Positions 7,220 to 61,945 of a stretch of 64,000 bases of DNA are shown here, in pieces (position 1 is the first letter of the stretch; each line of letters opens with the position of its first letter). This stretch comes from Sipunculus nudus. Its lineage: Eukaryota; Annelida; Sipuncula; Golfingiida; Sipunculidae. The stretch spans positions 77,478,300 to 77,542,299 of the forward strand of contig CM049314.1 of assembly GCA_026874595.1 (NCBI GenBank), in the 5' to 3' direction. Under the pieces are notes generated by a model. It was not told where the DNA came from, ran no database searches, and saw only the letters and a program-made list of their open reading frames with translations. The position numbers were made by a program, and so were the translations under genes.

Positions 7220-7223
7220 TTAA

Positions 7224-7462
7224 AGGGGCCCAACTACCTGTCTGACGTTTATAAACTTTATAAATCCCTTTGAGCTTTTATAAAAATAGACCAGAAAACT
7301 TGGATGTCACCGCATACAGGATGTTTGTTTTGTTTATACAAACATGTTTATTGTATGCGGGGGCCCGCTAAATAAATCAAAGCAAATTCAACAAGGGCAT
7401 TTGGTGGCGAGCCAATTAAGCCAGAGCTTTGCAAATGGAGTTTTGTAACACGTGACTTCGGC
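7224..7462 (-). mobile_element. TTAA-flanked non-autonomous element (family C), copy 1
   Basis: The right-hand end of this family is here at the left: TTAA at 7220-7223 followed by AGGGGCCCAACTACCTGTC. Read on the minus strand the copy contains CCATTTGCAAAGCTCTGG, an AATGCCCTTGTTG block, a TATAAACAAAACA block, a TTTTTATAAAAGCTC block and TTTATAAACGTCAGACAGGT before the end. The same blocks in the same order occur at 17885-18125 and 39737-39958, and partly at 21410-21676. The TTAA flank points to a TTAA-targeting superfamily (piggyBac or Kolobok type). There is no transposase frame. Confidence 0.65.
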
Positions 7463-8282
7463 ATATATGCAACCTACAACCTTCGGGTATATGTTTTCCC
7501 CGTTTTTCAACATTGATCTCTGAGTTTACAAACTCGTCGTAGGAATTATAAGAACTTTTCCAGAATTACCCTTAGATCATTATATACACAGAGGAAGCCA
7601 GAAAACACATAAATTGATTTTCAAAAGGTAGATGTATGGAATCTTAAATTACTAAAGGTAAAGAAAATAAAAGTATGAACATAAGTAAAAAGCGGTGAAA
7701 CCAATTGTGCGTATTAAAATCTGTACACATATGAGTTTATTTAAACTTTCAAAATTGAGAAAAAAAGTTAAGTCGTCGTTTCGTATAAAAATAATCGATA
7801 ATAAAAAAAATCTACTTTTTTCAGACATTCCCCTGAGCATGTCCAAGACGTTATCCGGTTCGGTGATTCGAAGGATAACGCTGCCATTATCATGAAGCAG
7901 GTTTTTTTTAAGATTTATTTGGGTGTCAGTTCACCTATGGCAAGCTAGCAGGTATTCTAAAAGGCAAGCTGATGGAGCGAATTATTATATCAAAACGTTA
8001 GGATTGACTGACAAGTTGTTTAACCTTTGTGAGATAAGCCTGCCCGATGGAACGTACACCTGTCCCTTAGAGGAAATGATGCACTGTCTGACTCTTGTCT
8101 TTGGGCAGAAACGGAGAGGAGACCTGTCCACATCAAGTTGAATTTTGTTTGATCTGATATTGTAAAAAAAATCAACCACAATGTATCGGATCTCCTAAAT
8201 TGCACAATTACTTTTCTTAAGAAGGTATGACACTATGTGCACTTTTCACATTTTACTATACACTTTAGTTGATGTGTTCGCA
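7463..8282. other. No gene seen
   Basis: Overlapping frames of 61-72 codons occur on both strands near 7652-8205. None has a recognisable domain and they are antisense to one another, which fits chance. Confidence 0.45.
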
Positions 8283-8807: not shown

Positions 8808-9041
8808 TGTTACGGGGTGACATAAAAGCGGACCGAACTGTCTCGCTTGTGAAGCTTGCTTTGCAAGCGATGCGGTTGGTACTCCGGACTAGTGCGCCAC
8901 CGACATGGGTTCGAATCCGTGATCGGCCCAGTATTTTCCCCTGAAATATTTGTCTTCATAACACCTACTACTACTTCTAGTAATAATAATAATAATAATA
9001 TAAGTTATCATAATATCAATAATCATACTGCTAATACTAGG
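8808..9041 (+). repeat. Short LTR-like unit with tRNA-like core, copy A1
   Basis: The unit opens TGTTACGGGGTGACATAAAAG and reaches CATAACA at about 8962, then runs through a CTACTACTACTTCTAG / (TAA)n tail to TACTGCTAATACTA. It matches 16394-16637 almost throughout. Inside is a hairpin at 8844-8869, then a tRNA-like stretch with GGTTGGTA and a perfect B box GGTTCGAATCC near 8908-8918. TGTTAC...GTAACA ends, and a polypurine tract just before the sister copies, suggest an LTR. The pol III-like core instead suggests a SINE or tRNA-derived insert. It may be a short LTR that captured a tRNA-like sequence. The exact right boundary is unclear. Confidence 0.55.
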
Positions 9042-9318
9042 CTTACCGCCAGAAATTCAGAAATTGGGAAAAGCGCAAAAATCAGACCTACGTCAAATTT
9101 GCTAGGACAAAAGAGCAGTTGTGTGATCGCTGGTGTAGTTCTAAAAATGTAATGAAAGATTATGAAAAATTGCGCCAGTTGATTTTGCTTGAAGAATTCA
9201 AGCGTTGCATTAACGCAGATGTTAAAACTTTTCTCGATGAGAAAAGTCCTGAAAACACTTGACATTGCTGCTCAATGAGCTGATGATTATTCATTTACAC
9301 ACAAAATGGGGGCTCGTC
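9040..9318 (+). pseudogene. gag: Retroelement gag fragment (SCAN-like), copy A
   Basis: This is a second copy of 16011-16289, with about 18 differences in 280 bases by eye. It covers the SCAN-like second half of gag. A one-base insertion in the run near 9250 shifts the frame and TGA appears at the join with the shifted frame. The 5' side joins directly to the TACTGCTAATACTA tail of the preceding LTR-like unit, so the first half of gag and any leader are missing. At 9308-9318 it passes into a sequence like a tRNA-Pro primer-binding site, as in copy B. It is dead as a protein gene. Confidence 0.8.
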
Positions 9319-9510
9319 CTGGGTGACGGTAAACTTTGTGGCCCAGGGAATAAGCTCACCAAAGTGTGACTTCTGGGATAATTAGTCTTGTTCTGATTGC
9401 AGAACGCTCTTAAGAGGGGGTGTGTTACGGGGTAACATAAAAGCGAACCGAAGTGTCTCGCCTTTCTAGCAGTATTTTACCCTGCAATATTTGTTTTCAT
9501 AATAATATGT
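9319..9510 (+). mobile_element. Post-gag remnant, polypurine tract and truncated LTR-like unit A2
   Basis: About 90 bases match 16290-16382, including CACCAAAGTGTGAC and GGATAATTAGTCTTG. The polypurine tract TTAAGAGGGGG is at 9410-9420, and the LTR-like start TGTTACGGGGTAACATAAAAG begins at 9423. Compared with A1 this second unit lacks the hairpin and the tRNA-like core: sequence passes from TGTCTCGCC directly to CAGTATTTTACCCTG. A polypurine tract next to TG is the second-strand priming site of LTR retroelements, which supports the LTR reading of the short unit. Confidence 0.6.
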
Positions 9511-14375: not shown

Positions 14376-15208
14376 TGTTACAGGTGCTCTTTTTATTGTG
14401 TGACACGGGCGTAACTCGTGTTGTAGTTGCACTCTCAGTTTAACCCGTACTGGTTGAACTCTCGATGTCATGCTAGCTTGGGACGTTCTCGCATGGCCGG
14501 GCCGGGTCGGACTCACGTGTGGACCCTGGTATGTAGGGTCACAGCGATGTTCTTCTAGATGATTCCTGTGACGCGTGTTTACTGTGTATTTTGTTAGATC
14601 CTTTAGACTGTTCGAGAAGTGTAAAATTCTCGGCTTGGGGCAAGAAGTTATAAACAGGGGGCTGTGTTTTAGAGCTGGGAGAGAGGTGAAGAATATTCCG
14701 GCGGGCACAGACGTGTTCAAGTCAGTTTGTGGGACCAGTCCGATTATCCAGTAATTTCAGGGATTCCACTATTACTGACCTATACAATTTGGTGCTGCCT
14801 GCCTCAAGTTTACTATCTGAATTGTTACAAGAGCTTTACATTGGACTATTATTCTCCGAGAGAATTCATGTGAACTGTACGCCGGCTTATACATTTTAAA
14901 GGACTTATCGTTGTGACGGCGGTGGTATCCAGGTACTGTGCACATTGTTTATTTTACTGTGGGACTGTATTTAATTTTTTGCTATACCGCTGTTGTACTG
15001 TTCAATTATTTGATTTAGTGTATTGTAGTGTTAGGGTTGTTTTAGGAATAAATTATAGTTATTTGTTAACAAGAAACCACTGACTTCTTTGTTCATTCCA
15101 CTAGACATTTCACGATGCCTAGTGTTACAGAATCTGACTTTTTATCTCCTTGACAGAATTTATGTTCATCACGCTTACATGATCTGTTTGATATTAGGTT
15201 CCGTAACA
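14376..15208 (+). mobile_element. 833-bp long terminal repeat (5' LTR)
   Basis: The LTR starts TGTTACAGGTGCTC and ends TTCCGTAACA, the standard TG...CA termini. A TATA-like TTATAAAC lies at 14648-14655 and a polyadenylation signal AATAAA at 15047-15052, giving a plausible U3-R-U5 order. It is the same family as 61052-61945, with which it shares long blocks: ACTCGTGTTGTAG, the GGTTGAAC region, ATTATTCTCCGAGAGAATT, GGTGGTATCCAGGTACTGTG, GTGTTAGGGTTGTTTTA and CCTAGTGTTACAGAATCTGA. A primer-binding site follows six bases after its end. A 115-codon minus-strand frame within it is not a gene. Confidence 0.88.
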
Positions 15209-15376: not shown

Positions 15377-16296
15377 ATGGCAGATTTCAAACCTTAGACA
15401 TTTGTTGACGATCCCCACCATGATCAACTTGAACAGTTGACAAAAGAACAGTTGTTGCGTTTGGGACAACACTTAGGGCTTGGGGTTAAAACAGATTTCA
15501 GAAAGCCTCATATCATTGCTTAAACCATGCAAGATCTAGTTAGCAAATGTTTAATTGCAGGGGTGAAGTGGAAACATAAAAAAAATGACAGCCTTGCTAT
15601 GCAATTAGAATGAAAAAAGTTAAGCAACATGAGCTAGCATTTGAAGAGAGGGAAGAACGGTTAGAAAAAGAAAGAATAGAAAAAGAAAAAGAAATTGAGT
15701 TAAAACGATTGGTGTTGGAAAGACTTAAACTAGAACATAGTCTACGTGCTGCCCCAACTCGCAGTTTTGATGTTACTAAACACATTAGACTTGTCCCACC
15801 TTTTCAAGAAGAAGAGGTTGATAAATATTTCTTTTACTTTGAGAAGGTAGCTGAAAATTTAAAATGGCCTAAGGAAAATTGGACTATGCTGTTACAAAGT
15901 GTATTGACTGGCAAGGCCAGAGAAATTTATACAGAGCTTTCAGTAGTAGCTGCTGCTGACTATGACCTGGTAAAACGGTTAATCCTAAAAGGTTATGATT
16001 TAGTTCTGGAGGCTTACCGCCAGAAATTCAGAAATTGGGAAAAGCGCAAAAATCAGACCTATGTTAAATTTGCTAAGACAAAAGAGCAGTTGTTTGATCG
16101 CTGGTGTAGTTCTAAAAATGTAATGAAAAATTATGACAATTTGCGCCAGTTGATTTTGCTTGAAGAAATCAAGCGCTGTATTAACGCAGATGTTAAAACT
16201 TTTCTTGATGAGAAAAGTCCTGAAACCCTTGACATTGCTGCTCAATTAGCTGATAATTATTCATTAACACACAAAATGGGGGCTCGTCCAACGTGA
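15377..16296 (+). pseudogene. gag: Gmr1-like Ty3/gypsy gag, broken (copy B)
   Basis: The likely original start is the ATG at 15377. That frame is stopped by TAG at 15395 and TAA at 15521, and ends at TGA 15611. A frame change between 15587 and 15610 leads to the open part, 15610-16296 (228 codons). The first 40 residues of that part are a charged Glu/Lys/Arg coiled coil. A matrix/capsid-like region follows (around VPPFQEEEVDKYF and LTGKAREIY). A SCAN-like capsid C-terminal part comes next (around RQKFRNWEK, KEQLFDRWC, LRQLILLEEIKRCI, LDIAAQLADNYSLTHK). SCAN domains of vertebrates derive from such Gmr1-type gag proteins. The frame ends shortly after THK in a primer-binding-site-like sequence. 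No zinc knuckle, protease, RT or integrase follows, so the copy is non-autonomous and dead. Confidence 0.85.
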
Positions 16297-16393
16297 CGGT
16301 AAAACTTTGTAGGCCAGGGAACAAGCTCACCAAAGTGTGACTCCTGGGATAATTAGTCTTGCTCTGATAGCAGAACGCTCTTAAGAGGGGGTG
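16297..16393 (+). mobile_element. Post-gag remnant and polypurine tract
   Basis: This stretch replaces the whole of pol. It contains ACAAGCTCACCAAAGTGTG and ATAGCAGAACGCTC. It ends in the polypurine tract TTAAGAGGGGG (16381-16391), immediately upstream of the TGTTAC start of the short LTR-like unit. Copy A carries the same segment at 9319-9420. Confidence 0.65.
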
Positions 16394-16559
16394 TGTTACG
16401 CGGTGACATAAAAGTGGCCCGAACTGTCTCGCCAGTGAAGCTTGCTTTGCTGGCGAAGCGGTTGGTACGCCGGACTTGTGCGCATGAACAAGCGTGATCC
16501 ATGATCGGCCCAGTATTTTCCCCTGAGCAATTTGTCTTCGTAACACCTACTACTACTTC

Positions 16560-16597
<38 letters not shown>

Positions 16598-16637
16598 TGT
16601 TATCATAATATCAATAATCATACTGCTAATACTACCA
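16394..16637 (+). repeat. Short LTR-like unit with tRNA-like core, copy B
   Basis: It starts TGTTACGCGGTGACATAAAAG and reaches CGTAACA at 16545. It continues through CTACTACTACTTCTAA and a (TAA)n microsatellite (about 16559-16600) to ATACTGCTAATACTA, matching 8808-9041. The hairpin is at 16430-16455. The B box is damaged here (AGCGTGATCCATGATC in place of GGTTCGAATCC). The unit is unlike the 833-bp LTR at the other end of this element, so the two ends come from different families or the copy is chimeric. Confidence 0.55.
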
Positions 16638-17884: not shown

Positions 17885-18125
17885 CAACCTTGTTGCAAAA
17901 CGCCATTTGCAAAGCCCTGGCTAATCTGACTTGCTGCCAGATGACCTCGTTTAATTTGTTTTGATTATGTTCAGGGCCCACAAATGTTATAAACCCGATG
18001 AAATCAACAAAATAAGCAGCCTGTGTTCGATGATACCCGCGTTTCCTGGCCTATTTTTTTTATAAAAGCTCCAGTTTAGTTTATAAAGGCCAGATAGGTG
18101 ATTGGGTTTTTTTACCTGAACTTTA
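17885..18125 (+). mobile_element. TTAA-flanked non-autonomous element (family C), copy 2
   Basis: Blocks in order are CTTGTTGCAAAACGCCATTT, GCAAAGCCCTGGCTAATCTG, ACTTGCTGCCAGATGACCTC, a TATAAAC block, TTTTTTATAAAAGCTCCAG and TTTATAAAGGCCAGATAGGT. The usual AGGGGCC end has decayed to GATTGGGTTTTTTTACC. Compared with 39737-39958 the order and spacing agree. No open frame. Confidence 0.65.

Positions 18126-19204: not shown

Positions 19205-19261
<57 letters not shown>
19205..19261. repeat. (AT)n microsatellite
   Basis: A pure dinucleotide run of about 28 units. Confidence 0.97.
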
Positions 19262-30735: not shown

Positions 30736-30810
30736 CGGTTTGCCTGTCCGTTCGTCGCTGTCTGAAGAGATGTCACTTAATTTGTTTGTGTCACTGCATT
30801 AACTGTTGGT

Positions 30811-30870
30811 CTGTCTCTTTTGCAGATGCCAGACGTCTCCCTTTCTGACTTCCCTGGGTTAATCTTTTTA

Positions 30871-30938
<68 letters not shown>

Positions 30939-31056
30939 ACTGCACTTTTGTTCAACCTAATGTCTCATATTTACTTTTATGTTTTTATTTTATTTTCTGT
31001 CTCTTTTGCAGATGCCAGACGTCTCCCTTTCTGACTTCCCTGGGTTAATCTTTTTA

Positions 31057-31118
<62 letters not shown>

Positions 31119-31176
31119 ACTGCACTTTTGTTCAACCTAATGTCTCATATTTACTTTTATGTTTATATTTTATTTT
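30811..31176 (+). repeat. Tandem duplication containing a TA/TG microsatellite
   Basis: Unit 1 (30811-30996) and unit 2 (30997-31176) begin with the same CTGTCTCTTTTGCAGATGCC. Both continue through GACTTCCCTGGGTTAATC, a (TA)n(TG)n run (30874-30938 and 31060-31118), GACTGCACTTTTGTTCAACC and CTCATATTTACTTTTATG. Outside the microsatellite the copies are nearly identical, so the duplication is recent or gene-converted. The TA run has become shorter in unit 2. Confidence 0.93.
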
Positions 31177-32208
31177 CTGTCTTCTCCCCTTTTGTGTGTC
31201 TGCTGACTGTATAGCTCTTGTTGTATCCATCCCCCGTACCCCCCTCCACCCCCCCTCTCTCTCTCTCTCTCTTGCTGTCTGTCTCTCCCTTCACGAAGGG
31301 TTTTCGGTAGAAACTGATTTATTATAGCATAATATCATGAGGAACTATATGCAGCTTTGTAGCTTGACAAAATCTATAACAGACTGTCACAGACTCGCGG
31401 CAAGAAAGTCATCGGTATTCATGAGTCCAAGCTCTATTATATGTATATTTGAGATTCGAGAAATATCGGATGATTTATGTATGTGTCATTCTTGAGCTCC
31501 AGACATATATTTCAAATATGACCTTCTGGATCCAAATATATGCTGACATCGTCTCTTAATCTGCATCATAATGGTGTTTTAAGGAATATCACATGGAGCT
31601 CAATGTTTTAAAGAAGGCCAACATGTAAAATAATCCAGGTTATATATCATATTATAAAGTAATCAACATATATAGGATATTTAAATCAGTTTGGGATATG
31701 TGTTAGATCCCCTAACGGGAGCCCGTCTGGGTATTTGGATTTTTGTCTACCTTACAGCTCATATAAATATGGTTTCCATGTCTGGCTTTTGAAATATAAA
31801 TTTTATATCTAACTTTCAGAATATAACGGCCTTGTTGAGATGCATATATATGCTAAAGAGGCGGCATGCATTTATGTATAACAGACTTAATATATATTAA
31901 ATATAAAATATCCTGGTAATTTAAACTCCGAAAACTAACAAACTAACCCTTTTGTTTCCCAAAAATCTTACAAAACATAATATGACATAATACTGTACAT
32001 GTGATCACGAATGATACCATGATGACGTAAAATACGAAAAAATATGATTCGGTTTTACACAATTCTTCAAATATTGTCACAGATCCCTTCCAAACGTGAA
32101 TTTGCAGAATCATTTGACCCTCCAGAAGTGTTTCCCCGATAGTACCCTACAGTCCCCTGAGCGTTATATGTTATATCAACATATATACTCACAGCGCACA
32201 TTTGTATG
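31177..32208. other. No gene seen
   Basis: CT-rich until about 31290, then AT-rich. No supported feature. Confidence 0.45.
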
Positions 32209-39400: not shown

Positions 39401-39736
39401 CGTGGTTTCGATGTAGGACAAATATACCTCTTCCAAAAGAATTACACGGTGTGGAACAACGTCTCTTGTGTGCCAATAAAAATCAACCAACGTTAACATC
39501 CCAGATTTAAAGATAGCCATTCACCTACCTTTTGAAAAAGAATTTATGTGATTTCTGGCTTTCTCTGTGTATATATCAATGATCTAGGGATATTTTTGAA
39601 TTTAAATTCTAATAATAAGGCCTTCGTGAAGGATGAATGAAGTTGTTTATCAACATGTTTGTAATAACAGCAATCTTGACAAACGGGGAAAAGATGTAAC
39701 ATAAGATGGTACGTTGCATATATGCGGAGGTAGAAA
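36461..39736. other. Long gene-free stretch
   Basis: AT-rich with no supported gene. A short imperfect direct repeat (AGCTTGTAAGGCC and AGCATGTAAGGCC) lies near 37700-37740. Confidence 0.45.
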
Positions 39737-39958
39737 GATCACTTGTTGCAAAACGCTATTTGCAAAACCCTGGCATATCTGACATGCTGCCAGATGCCCT
39801 TGTTGGATTATTTTGGAACCCCCATCCCCCACATTTTATAAAGAAGTTGATATAAACAAAACATACATGAGGTGATGTTCACTTTTCTGGCCCATTTGTA
39901 TAAAAGCTCCAAGGGATTACCTTGAGTTTATAAAGGTCAGATAGGTGATAGGGCCCCT
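39737..39958 (+). mobile_element. TTAA-flanked non-autonomous element (family C), copy 4
   Basis: Blocks in order are CACTTGTTGCAAAACGCTAT, TTGCAAAACCCTGGCATATC, GACATGCTGCCAGATGCCCT, GATATAAACAAAACATAC, TATAAAAGCTCCAAGGGAT and TTTATAAAGGTCAGATAGGT. The right end is GGGCCCCT, directly followed by TTAA (39959-39962). The left end lacks a TTAA and may be truncated. It is the cleanest match to copy 2. Confidence 0.7.
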
Positions 39959-39962
39959 TTAA

Positions 39963-51400: not shown

Positions 51401-53831
51401 TAATAAATCTGAAATTAAAAATAATAAAGGATATTAAAAAAATGTTGGTTATTTTTATATTTCTCGTACCCTCAGCTATAAATATATATGTCATAATACG
51501 TCGATGAAACGGGAACAGAGTTGAAGAGTGAAATGACCAGGGACGCCGAGTGGATAATTTTGAGGCAGTTTAACAAGGTTTCCGAACCCTCTGCCCCCCC
51601 CCCCCTACTATTCAATTATATAGGTTAAAACATATATGTGAATTCAATATAATCCTAATGCAATCTAGCCTATGAAAGGTGTAACAGACAATGCTCTATT
51701 TATATAGGACAGGGAATCACAGAAATGCTTGAATTTTTTTACTGCATTTGAGACCGTGTACTATTATGCTTCATGCTGTACTTTCTCTGGCATTATACAC
51801 CATGTCATATGGAGGCCTTATCAATGCACGATGCACGGAACAATTCGTGTATAAAAGTGATGAAAGCTATCTTTACTAATATTTGTTTATACATGTAAAA
51901 TTGTATCTCAGTTATATTATTCATGTAGACCAAAGCTTAAAGGACATGGCAGATTTGGCGTAATTGTCAATAAACAAAGTAAAAAAAAAACAATAAAAAT
52001 TCTAATTATAGCACTATAACCTTAAGGCTTAAAATTATGTGACCCTTATCTATCTATACTATCAACAACAATATTTTTTTCAAAACGACAAGCGACATAA
52101 ACGACATAAACAGTAAAGCTTCATATTATTAATATAACTAAAACATAGTTGGGATTTTCTAGACAAAGATTTACCTGCTTCCATTCTGATTAGGCCTTCG
52201 AAATTCGGCACACTTGTCGACGATACGCTCTTCTAGGATAAGTTTGTTTTATTTTGCGTGATTATGCCCTTTTTAAGCTGCCAGATTAATAATTTTCATA
52301 TTCTCCCTATTGGCACTCCTTGAGGATATTCCTGCAATTCGAGGTCACTGGCCATAGTGCATATTGTGCAAAGAGGTCCACACTAATCCCCATTGATCCC
52401 CATAATTCACTGAAGAAGAAGTCAAGCCTTTAATTCAAAACAAAGTCCACCTGACTCCGCTTTCAGGAAAGTTTTTTTTAGTTTGGGTTTAATACTACGT
52501 AAAGTTACATGATGACCTTTTGACTTTCTAAGGGTTTACAGTGTGTTGATTTATATACATTCATAAAAACAATCTTTCCAATCTAAATATGGTTTCAGTA
52601 GATCATCCAGTTTGTGGTATGTTTGAAGAAAAGTTGTTCAAAGCCATCCAACTGATAGGGATTCTATTAACAAACTAGATTATGCAGTCGAAGCCTTAAA
52701 ACCACAACCAGAATCAACTAATCAGTCATGTGTTGAAGTGTACACTTCTCATAATTAAACACTGTCATACCGCAGTGACCATATTCCCCATGGCGAGTGG
52801 CAGAACAAATGCATACGAATGGGTGGCTTCTACATGGTTACAAAGGAATTCTTTTTTATGTCATAATGGTATATAAGAGATATATCATGTTGATTCCGAT
52901 TAATTCCAAAATTGAATGGACTGCTCAATCCGGTTTACGCTTACACTCTGCAGATGTTCTGAAAAATCGGAATTTATTTTTGCGTTGATTTTACTTAAGA
53001 AACCAAAGATTTCTCTTTGCCACGGACTTGCACCGAAATCTGTCATTAATCTGTGAGCACATCACTTTCCGATCAACCTGATGACATCAACATAGCTCAG
53101 GGCAAGCTTTTTATGCTGTAGGAGTCAATTTGCATGAGCCTGTCTTTCAACATAGGCAGCTTTTAGTTACATTGTCAAGGGCAAGTACCTTCAGTGACTT
53201 ATATGTGTTTGTTATCAAAACCAAGACTTCCATTATTTGACATCTAAAAACACCGTCTTTCGTGATCTCCTTCGAGCTTTATTTTACACAAATCATTATT
53301 CATAAACTTTCACTTTTTCTATATAGATGGCTTATATATACAATCGCCATCGTGCCCATTTTGTTTATAATAAGAAAAATAAGTGCTAACGCAAAAGTCG
53401 TATACCCTTTATCAAGTTTATGCCCGTGTTTTGAAGAAAGGCATGATGGGGTTGGGGTGTGACATGGTGGAGAAAAGTTTTAAAGGAACAAGTTTTTTGT
53501 AAATTTATTTTTGACAAGAATCTAACCCGGGGGAATCCTCTTCAAATAAACTGATACAAATAAACAAACTTAATTGACCTTATTACCCGCACTAAAACTA
53601 CTTTATTCATAAAAATATAGCGCAAAACAGAGCCTTGCAAAGGACAAGGAGCCCATTCTGGAATTTAAAAGAATCCATCACCCAATATAATGGCACATTG
53701 TCAATTAACGACATACAACACTTGACAGATTTATTGTTTATTTTATTTAATAAAAAATACCATAGATGCATTATGTATATATTTCTGGTTTCTCGGCAAA
53801 CCTCATCTAATTGTTCCATCATCTAGACAAC
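51401..53831. other. Long gene-free stretch
   Basis: AT-rich, with a C-tract at about 51595-51606. Frames of 60-70 codons at 52797-52988, 53262-53462 and 53607-53826 are unrecognised and at chance length. Confidence 0.45.
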
Positions 53832-53996
53832 TTCCTTTCGTGACATGGCATTTTCGTGTAACAATTTAAAAAAATATCGCCTTAAATTACATAATTTCAG
53901 TAATCTTGCAATTTTCAACAATTTTTTAAATGTTATCCTCATTATTATTAGGTTGTGGAGCTATTACGCGGTACGTAGATTAGCAAGCCACTTATT
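53832..53996 (+). repeat. Direct repeat copy 1, carrying the empty transposon site
   Basis: This about 165-base unit is repeated at 54062-54192 plus 55841-55886. Shared blocks are CATTTTCGTGTAA, ATTACATAATTTCAGTAATC, TTGTGGAGCTATTACGCG and TAGATTAGCA(A/T)GCCACTTA. At 53958-53962 it holds GAGCT followed directly by ATTACGCG, which is the uninterrupted form of the site occupied by the transposon in copy 2. Confidence 0.88.
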
Positions 53997-54061
53997 AAAA
54001 TTAATTTAGATGCATTGCATACCTTGTTTTGGTTTCTGTAATTTTCTCAATATCTCATTAT

Positions 54062-54192
54062 TTTCTTTAGTGACATGTCATTTTCGTGTAAAATTAAATG
54101 AAATGTCGCCTGAATTTACATAATTTCAGTAATCATGCAATTTTCCACAATGTTTGAAATGTTGTTCGTCACTTTTGCTCGCCTGTGGAGCT
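54062..54192 (+). repeat. Direct repeat copy 2, left part
   Basis: Matches 53832-53962 up to and including GAGCT, where the transposon begins. Blocks are GTGACATGTCATTTTCGTGT, TTTACATAATTTCAGTAATC and CTGTGGAGCT. The remaining part of the unit resumes at 55841. Confidence 0.88.
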
Positions 54193-54476
54193 TGTTACAA
54201 CCCATAATGTAATAACCGGCCCATAATGTAATAACGGCCCATATTGTAATAAAAACGACCCATAATGTAATAATCATACCCTGCCAATATTGTAATAAAA
54301 CTGGCCCATACTGTAATAACGGCCCATAATGTAATAAAAAACGGCCCATATTGTAATAACGGCCCATATTGTAATAAAAACGACCCATATTGTAATAATC
54401 ATACCCTACCCATATTGTAATAAAACGGGAAGTGGGAAAAACGACCCATATTGTAATAACATATTTATATTGTAAT
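54193..54476 (+). repeat. Left inverted arm: 13 copies of a 15-bp motif
   Basis: Copies of CCCATAATGTAATAA or CCCATATTGTAATAA are spaced by short CGG, AAAACGA or TCATACCCT(G/A) linkers; the last copies decay to TTTATATTGTAATAA. Part of the arm is itself duplicated (the TCATACCCT linker occurs twice), which makes it longer than the right arm. Confidence 0.93.
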
Positions 54477-54641
54477 AACATATGTTTAAGCTCAAGAATG
54501 ACAGGGCACACGCTTAGTGTCATTTACATAATATCCTGCCCCCTTCCAAACCCTCTCCATGAACCTGTTCTCCTAACCTCAAAGAAACCATGGTTCATAA
54601 TTGAATTAAAAAATAATATTTTCATACACTAAAATATAACG

Positions 54642-54642
<1 letters not shown>

Positions 54643-54678
<36 letters not shown>

Positions 54679-54679
54679 T
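54643..54679. repeat. (TAA)n microsatellite inside the transposon
   Basis: About 12 units, followed by ATTATTATTATT, so the tract is locally self-complementary. Confidence 0.93.
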
Positions 54680-54779
54680 AATAATTATTATTATTATTTT
54701 AATAATAATAATATATATATATATACATATATATACACGTATATATAACAGTTTTCATAGTACCCATGTATGCATATTA

Positions 54780-54916
54780 GCGCCCCCCCCCCCTACAACT
54801 TTCGAATTTCTAGATCCGCCACTAATCATGGCCCCCTGCCCTCTCTCAAACCTGGCTACGCCCCTGAATCTCCCCGCTCTGCGCCCTATGCTCTACCTCT
54901 AGAACACAGAAACCGG
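54780..54916 (-). repeat. Poly-C repeat and tRNA-like SINE head inside the transposon
   Basis: A C-tract at 54783-54792 is followed by TCTAGATCCGCCACTAATC and CTGGCTACGCCCCTGAATC, the minus-strand form of a GGGGCGTAGCC-type dispersed repeat. On the minus strand TTCTAGAGGTAGAGCATAGG (about 54886-54906) resembles the A box of the SINE at 5465-5622. GGGGAGATTCAGGGG stands where a B box should be but is degraded. Confidence 0.45.
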
Positions 54917-55319
54917 CATTTTCAAATTGTTATTTTGTTGTTTGGGCTAATTATTTAAAAAAAATAAATTGTAAACTCTTGAATCGCACGAATGACGCAT
55001 CCAGGTTTTAACTTCAAATACGTGCGTTGAAAGCTCTTAATCTATGCGACGTGTTATACATGTTAACCTAAGACATCTTAACCAATACATATATAGGCAC
55101 CAAAAAATTGCAGCATTACCTCCAGTTATAATTTCCAAATCTCGGGAGGTTTCGAGAGATCATATAAAATATTCTCTATGATACATTGAGCAAAACGCAC
55201 TGAAATTTAAACTTTCATTTATATTTTAAAAAGAATTAAAATACATTAAAATGTATCGATAATGAGAGTTTTGTATATTTTATCTGTTAAAATTGACAAA
55301 ATATTTACATTTTGGCGAT

Positions 55320-55340
55320 ATACATATATATATATATATA

Positions 55341-55403
<63 letters not shown>
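55320..55403. repeat. (TA)n microsatellite inside the transposon
   Basis: TA run of about 40 units with one interruption near 55341. Confidence 0.96.
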
Positions 55404-55405
<2 letters not shown>

Positions 55406-55630
55406 CTTGTTAAAATACTTTATCATCCTATTTAAACACTGATTCAACAAAAGAATAATCATGAATCATGTCCATATTTCGCTCATATTAGCTTGGTCAC
55501 CGTTTTAAACAAATAGTCATTATGTAATCCAGTGGTTTTTCATACTTGTATGTTCATTTACACATTCGTGTCACGAGAAGTCAATATTTGAATTGTCCAA
55601 GTTAATTTGCATGAACTTTGATTTATAAAA

Positions 55631-55840
55631 TTATTGGCCGTTTTACCCACCTTCGATTTTGTTACAATATGGGCCGTTTTACCCACTTGCGATTTTATTA
55701 CAATATGGGCAGGGTATAGTTATTACAATATGGGCCGTTTTTTATTACATTATGGGCTATTATTACATTATGGGTCGTTTTTATTACAATATGGACCGTT
55801 ATTACATTATGGGCCAGTTATTACATTATGGGTCGTAACA
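55631..55840 (-). repeat. Right inverted arm: 8 copies of the 15-bp motif
   Basis: Read inward from the right end, the order of motifs and linkers follows the left arm, including the ATACCCTGCCCATATTG linker and an AAGTGGG(A/T)AAAACG linker. The arms are therefore homologous as a whole and did not arise as two independent arrays. Confidence 0.93.
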
Positions 55841-55886
55841 GAGCTATTACGCGTTACCTAGATTAGCATGCCACTTAGCCAAATGT
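55841..55886 (+). repeat. Direct repeat copy 2, right part
   Basis: GAGCTATTACGCGTTACCTA and GATTAGCATGCCACTTA continue the unit interrupted by the transposon and match 53958-53996. Confidence 0.88.
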
Positions 55887-61051: not shown

Positions 61052-61945
61052 TTTTACAGGTGCCCTTTTCATTTTGTGCATCAGTCTTGCATGTGTTTCT
61101 TTATTGCGCGCAGGTGTGCTCCACATGTTGCTGACATTTGGTTCGTGTGCCACGCGTAGCTCGTGTTGTAGCGGCCTCGCCTGGCCGGATGTTGCAGGCT
61201 CGGTTTAATCCGCATTGGTTGAACCCTGGCGTGTAGATCCAGAGCGTTCTTTGTTCTAGTATGTATTTTGAGTGTCTGTACTATGTATTATGTATTGTTC
61301 TTTTCGATTGGTCGTGAAAGGGAATTTTCTAGAGTTTTCGGAGGAAAGGTTATAAAAAGAGGCCGTGTTTTTAAGCTGAGAGAGAGGTCAGAGAATATTC
61401 CAGCGGACACAGAAGAGTGAAACCTTTTCTGGAACATGCAGCAGTTTTGAAGAGATTTTCTTCAAATTTATGACGGATTTTATGTAGTCTTCAGTTTGCC
61501 TTTCGGATCACTGCCAGGATTTCAGTTTTAGATAACAATAAATTGATTTCGTAATTACATTGGACTGTTATTCTCCGAGAGAATTTGTGTGAACTGTTCG
61601 TTCGGCTTATATATTTTAAAGGACTTATCGCTGTGACAGTGGTGGTATCCAGGTACTGTGCACTTTGTATATTTTACTGTGTGATTGTATTGATTTGCTG
61701 TAATACTGCTGTAATACTGTGTAATTGTATTGATATAGTGTATTGTAATGTTAGGGTTGTTTTAAGAATAAATTATTAGTATATATAGTTATATTTGTTA
61801 AAAAAAAAAAAAAACTACTGACTTCTCTATTCATTCCCCTAGACATTTCACGCTGCCTAGTGTTACAGAATCTGATTTTTTTTCTCCATTACAAAATTTA
61901 TGTTCATCACGCATACGTGATGTGTTTATATTAGCTTCCGTAACA
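61052..61945 (+). mobile_element. 894-bp solo LTR, same family as 14376-15208
   Basis: It starts TTTTACAGGTGCCC (one base from TGTTACAGGTGCTC) and ends TTCCGTAACA. Shared blocks with the 14.4-kb LTR include CGTAGCTCGTGTTGTAG, ATTATTCTCCGAGAGAATT (here GTTATTCTCC), TGGTGGTATCCAGGTACTGT and CCTAGTGTTACAGAATCTGA. A TATA box TATAAAAA lies at 61351-61358 and AATAAA at 61767-61772. No primer-binding site follows and no polypurine tract precedes it, so it is a solo LTR left by recombination. It is about 60 bases longer than the other LTR, with added sequence near its start and a poly-A run at 61801-61814. No clear target duplication. Confidence 0.88.

What the first reader, a model, noticed from the sequence alone, without database searches (positions are those of the whole stretch)
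53832..55886. Transposon with its empty site preserved in a neighbouring duplicate
A 165-base direct repeat occurs twice. In copy 1 GAGCT runs straight into ATTACGCG (53958-53970). In copy 2 the same point holds 1,648 bases flanked by GAGCT on both sides. This gives an internal, same-molecule proof of the element ends (TGTTAC...GTAACA) and of a 5-bp target duplication. It also orders events: the tandem duplication came first, then the insertion.
Basis: seen in the sequence. Interest (0 to 1): 0.85.

Follow-up and report, generated by a model that had tools for sequence, protein, structure and literature searches.

The report
Foldback transposon beside its empty site
A small jumping-DNA element with no recognisable gene landed in one of two side-by-side copies of a DNA segment, so the untouched neighbour shows exactly where it went in; the case is tidy but of an ordinary kind.

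Summary
Copy 1 (53832-53996) aligns to copy 2 (54062-54192 joined to 55846-55882) at 137 of 162 columns. The best single cut in copy 2 is 1,653 bp: a 1,648-bp element (54193-55840) plus one GAGCT. Both ends read TGTTAC inward and the 5-bp duplication is perfect. The 165-base repeat looks like the better-kept part of a head-to-tail duplication of about 247 bp.

The element has no recognisable transposase. Its inverted arms (about 290 and 218 bp) hold 12 and 8 copies of a 15-bp unit, CCCATAWTGTAATAA, on variable spacers. This is a non-autonomous foldback-type DNA transposon.

TGTNR ends with a 5-bp duplication fit integrase-type transposases, best Ginger2/TDD (PMC2836005, PMC10045372), but no transposase was found, so that class is inferred. 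Duplication first, insertion second is the simplest order; the divergences agree with it only weakly. Other copies could not be sought: the own-genome search did not complete 8 of 8 times. Host: probably an animal, species unknown. Interest is low; it is a new member of a known kind.

The parts
53747..53993 (.). Tandem duplicate copy 1 (empty site; best-conserved part 53832-53996; part before 53832 only weakly supported)
   Evidence: Alignments
53958..53962 (.). Unfilled target GAGCT in copy 1
53994..54192 (.). Copy 2, part left of the insertion
54188..54192 (.). Target-site duplication GAGCT, left
54193..55840 (.). The element, 1,648 bp, TGTTAC...GTAACA, no recognisable gene
54193..54482 (+). 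Left terminal inverted repeat: 12 units of CCCATAWTGTAATAA (inner limit approximate)
54483..55622 (.). AT-rich middle, apparently non-coding, with microsatellites at 54643-54747 and 55318-55402
55623..55840 (-). Right terminal inverted repeat: 8 units; lacks 85 bp (two blocks) present in the left arm (inner limit approximate)
55841..55845 (.). Target-site duplication GAGCT, right
55846..55882 (.). Copy 2, part right of the insertion

Best explanation
A segment of about 247 bp was duplicated in tandem. Later a 1,648-bp non-autonomous, foldback-type DNA transposon inserted into the downstream copy. A transposase supplied in trans, most likely of the retroviral-integrase-like DDE type (Ginger2/TDD-like), joined the TGT...ACA ends to a target cut with a 5-bp stagger; gap repair made the GAGCT duplication (inferred). 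The repeated 15-bp units in the arms are most likely transposase-binding sites, and gain or loss of units by unequal exchange made the arms unequal (inferred). Shown: ends, 5-bp duplication, empty paralogous site, arm structure, no recognisable transposase. Inferred: enzyme class, role of the units, order of events.
For: Best-cut search and copy alignment; the only inverted-end structure with a direct repeat of 5 bp or more under the scan's settings, none in 10 shuffles. Among the 20 units found, 11 of 15 positions are invariant, 3 differ in one unit and position 7 is mixed, while spacers between units run from 3 to 21 bases. Outer 82 nt of the arms match at 79 of 82. TGTTA fits TGTNR, and Ginger2 duplications are given as 4 or 5 bp (passages of PMC2836005, and PMC10045372). 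No Pfam hit for the five ORFs of 60 aa or more that overlap the element. Three hand-chosen arm blocks differ less (11 of 183) than the duplicates (25 of 162), Fisher p 0.005; on all 198 aligned arm columns it is 17 of 198, p 0.049.
Against: No transposase was found in the window ORFs tested, so the enzyme is a guess from ends and duplication length. Metazoan Ginger2 families in PMC2836005 make 4-bp duplications at AT-rich RTATAY sites; here it is 5 bp at GAGCT. One insertion gives one duplication length only. Units were picked by likeness to the 15-mer (at most 2 mismatches), so their constancy is partly by construction, and recent homogenisation would look the same as binding-site constraint. 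Arm divergence is no clean clock: arms may have differed before insertion or been homogenised since, and the contrast nearly vanishes on all aligned columns.
Confidence: 0.75

Rival explanations
1. A foldback element of the Mutator or P kind, classes to which known foldbacks with long repetitive arms have been assigned.
For: Most foldbacks are said to belong to Mutator, with exceptions (passage of PMC4079207); Galileo is placed in P (PMC3573991).
Against: Target duplications there are 8-10 bp (Tetris) and 7 bp (Galileo); the empty site here fixes it at 5.
Confidence: 0.15
2. The ends are those of a Gypsy-type LTR retroelement: two LTR-like ends in inverted orientation, integrated by a retrotransposon integrase.
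For: Gypsy LTRs share the TGTNR pattern and LTR elements make 3-6 bp duplications; a SCAN-type gag-like ORF lies in the window at 15589-16293.
Against: The repeats are inverted, not direct, and BLAST found no similarity to the element elsewhere in the window apart from a 37-base simple-repeat match at 19213.
Confidence: 0.12
3. Insertion came first, the filled unit was duplicated, and copy 1 later lost its element without trace.
For: Formally gives the same final sequence.
Against: Needs a footprint-free excision; copy 1 has a single clean GAGCT. The arms are less diverged than the duplicates, though only weakly so.
Confidence: 0.05
4. Assembly error joined unrelated sequence.
For: Tandem and inverted repeats are prone to misassembly; no reads were available.
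Against: A misjoin is not expected to make matching inverted ends and a perfect 5-bp repeat at the very point where the duplicate is continuous.
Confidence: 0.02

Closest known systems
Ginger2/TDD DNA transposons (PMC2836005, passages only)
   Same: Ends fit TGTNR; duplication within the 4-5 bp given; arm lengths within those of the table rows seen (45-297 bp).
   Different: No transposase here; target GAGCT is not RTATAY; the metazoan families there make 4-bp duplications; the words tandem and subterminal do not occur in that paper's main text.
Foldback elements: Tetris and Galileo (PMC4079207, PMC3573991, passages only)
   Same: Long inverted arms containing tandem repeats whose number varies; Tetris also has a non-coding middle.
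   Different: Their duplications are 8-10 and 7 bp, and their repeat units about 220 and 210 bp rather than about 20 bp.
Sea-urchin TU elements (recalled; original cited in PMC4079207 but not read)
   Same: As recalled, outer arm domain built of about 15-bp tandem repeats.
   Different: As recalled, 8-bp target duplication.

Membership tests
Non-autonomous TIR DNA transposon | Terminal inverted repeats bounded by a target-site duplication | tested here: met
Non-autonomous TIR DNA transposon | No transposase encoded | tested here: met
   5 of 5 ORFs of 60 aa or more overlapping the element (60-135 aa, two of them running past its ends) without Pfam hit at E 1; shorter or spliced pieces not tested
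Non-autonomous TIR DNA transposon | Several dispersed copies | not tested
   Own-genome search unanswered; no second copy in the 64-kb window
Foldback-type element | Long inverted arms containing tandem repeats | tested here: met
Ginger2/TDD | Ends TGTNR | tested here: met
   TGTTA at both ends
Ginger2/TDD | 4 or 5 bp target duplication | tested here: met
   5 bp, one insertion only
Ginger2/TDD | AT-rich RTATAY target preference | tested here: not met
   Target GAGCT, one site; a preference, so not decisive, but membership is not claimed
Ginger2/TDD | Integrase-like DDE transposase with H2C2 finger | not testable with these tools
   Element encodes no recognisable protein; the partner element was not available
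Ginger1 | 4-bp CCGG or CCGT target duplication | tested here: not met
   GAGCT; values from PMC2836005
Polinton and IS3EU/GingerRoot | 6-bp target duplication (usual length) | tested here: not met
   5 bp; values from PMC10045372

The most novel reading that the evidence does not exclude
A foldback family driven by an integrase-type (Ginger2-like) transposase. Each of the 20 arm units carries TGTAA, itself a TGTNR match, so internal units could act as alternative transposon ends and give nested or shortened copies.
Probability: 0.2. Interest if true: 0.4.

Novelty: new member of a known kind. Interest (0 to 1): 0.2.

Why it matters
The adjacent empty duplicate fixes both ends and the 5-bp duplication without any other copy, which is handy for classifying an element that has no gene. 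If the integrase-type reading holds, it would suggest that foldback architecture also arose in that transposase class. Otherwise it is routine genome annotation.

Tried and rejected
Exact-pattern scans for two neighbouring arm units gave 0 stretches in viral contigs and 0 in genome contigs; these hold viral and prokaryote DNA, so this says little about animals. A single 17-base unit gave 1 stretch in viral contigs (L001); I take it as chance, without a test, and did not read it. No tRNA and no Rfam family at gathering score in the window. Pfam on 24 window ORFs gave one hit above its curated cut-off, SCAN at 15589-16293, and a few weak ones below theirs; no integrase or transposase. These 24 are a choice, not all window ORFs.

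I tried to name the host through that SCAN protein: 1,776 hits, 120 listed, one of the 120 with an organism name, the acorn worm Ptychodera flava (59% identity). It is a retroelement-type protein, so this places the window among animals only loosely.

My first chance scan asked for 12 exact end bases and found nothing, because the two ends differ at position 7; I replaced it. The shuffles moved two-base blocks within 500-base stretches and are a rough null. One search also folded the outer arms into a hairpin, which follows from their being inverted repeats and adds nothing. Literature searches. In one search neither of the 2 papers listed holds 'foldback transposon' together with a Ginger term; other wordings were not tried, and the library lacks most subscription journals.

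Full report
What is there. The window is AT-rich (GC 0.364) without tRNA or Rfam matches. A SCAN-type gag-like ORF, whose only named relative among 120 listed is an acorn-worm protein, suggests an animal. The species is not known.

The duplicate. It seems to continue upstream at lower similarity (score 42 for 53700-53831 with 53980-54061, against at most 40 in 1,823 random pairs). That support is marginal, but it gives a unit of about 247 bp with abutting copies. Over the longer alignment 84.8% of 231 columns agree, with 33 gap columns.

The insertion. Within ranges of 80 and 60 bases for the two cut ends, the best single removal from copy 2 is 1,653 bp, in six tied placements at 37 of 46 bases; cuts of 1,674 bp come next at 36, level with one-base shifts of the best. 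Only the 1,653-bp cut also gives matching inverted ends and a direct repeat. The element is thus 54193-55840 and the duplication is GAGCT. A scan for inverted ends with direct flanking repeats found 5 rows in the window; only this one has 5 bp or more, and 0 of 10 shuffled windows gave such a row.

The element. With inner limits set by eye it has a left arm of 290 bp, a middle of 1,140 bp and a right arm of 218 bp. The arms carry 12 and 8 copies of CCCATAWTGTAATAA with at most 2 mismatches; the whole window has 20 such matches, all in the arms, against a mean of 1.00 and a maximum of 3 in 100 shuffles. Eleven of 15 positions are invariant, three differ in one unit, and one is mixed; spacers between units run from 3 to 21 bases. 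That suggests a bound core, but the units were picked by likeness, and recent homogenisation would look alike. Three arm blocks agree at 79 of 82, 39 of 39 and 54 of 62. In the whole-arm alignment the left arm has 46 and 39 bases that the right lacks, 85 bp in all, about four units. None of the five ORFs of 60 aa or more overlapping the element matched Pfam.

Order. Duplication first needs two events; insertion first needs a further footprint-free loss. The three arm blocks are less diverged (11 of 183) than the duplicates (25 of 162), Fisher p 0.005. But I chose the blocks; on all 198 aligned arm columns it is 17 of 198 and p 0.049. Arms also need not have been identical at insertion. I give this little weight.

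Class. From passages read: Ginger2 ends follow TGTNR, TDD-4 and TDD-5 make 5-bp and the metazoan families 4-bp duplications, with an AT-rich target preference (PMC2836005). Characteristic lengths are 4 for Ginger1, 4 or 5 for Ginger2, 6 for Polinton and 3-6 for LTR elements; IS3EU has TA..TA ends and usually 6 bp, GingerRoot 6 bp and occasionally TG..CA ends (PMC10045372; first of five parts read). Tetris makes 8-10 bp (PMC4079207), Galileo 7 (PMC3573991). Transib and RAG-like elements also make 5-bp duplications but begin with CAC (recalled, no call). TGTTAC with 5 bp therefore fits the integrase-like group best, and Ginger2/TDD within it. This is what it works like. Membership is not shown: no transposase was found and the target preference is not met at this one site. 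I put the Ginger2-like part alone at about one half; the 0.75 is for the whole reading with the class marked as most likely. The rival odds are not exclusive of one another.

Precedent. Paralogous empty sites are a recognised proof of transposition; PMC4495683 uses one at 11% flank divergence (passages). The finding is a clean example in which the empty paralogue happens to sit next door.

Noticed in passing
54776-54868: Inside the element's middle, a C-run followed by a stretch that reads like the end of another dispersed element (judged by eye, recalled resemblance only).
   Followed up: no
54193-54200 and 55833-55840: By eye, the terminal TGTTACRA resembles the junction between internal units (TGTAATAACGA) with a 3-base deletion and one change, so the ends may derive from an arm unit.
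   Followed up: no
15589-16293; 8808-9462: SCAN-type gag-like ORF; pieces of 16010-16634, partly overlapping it, recur at 8808-9462 in swapped order (84% and 92%).
   Followed up: partly
7220-7648, 17889-18106, 39507-39962; 14836-15208 and 61555-61945: Dispersed repeats of 69-72% and of 83% identity within the window.
   Followed up: no
30810-31182: Tandem duplication with a period of about 180 bp at 95% matches that includes AT and TG microsatellites.
   Followed up: no
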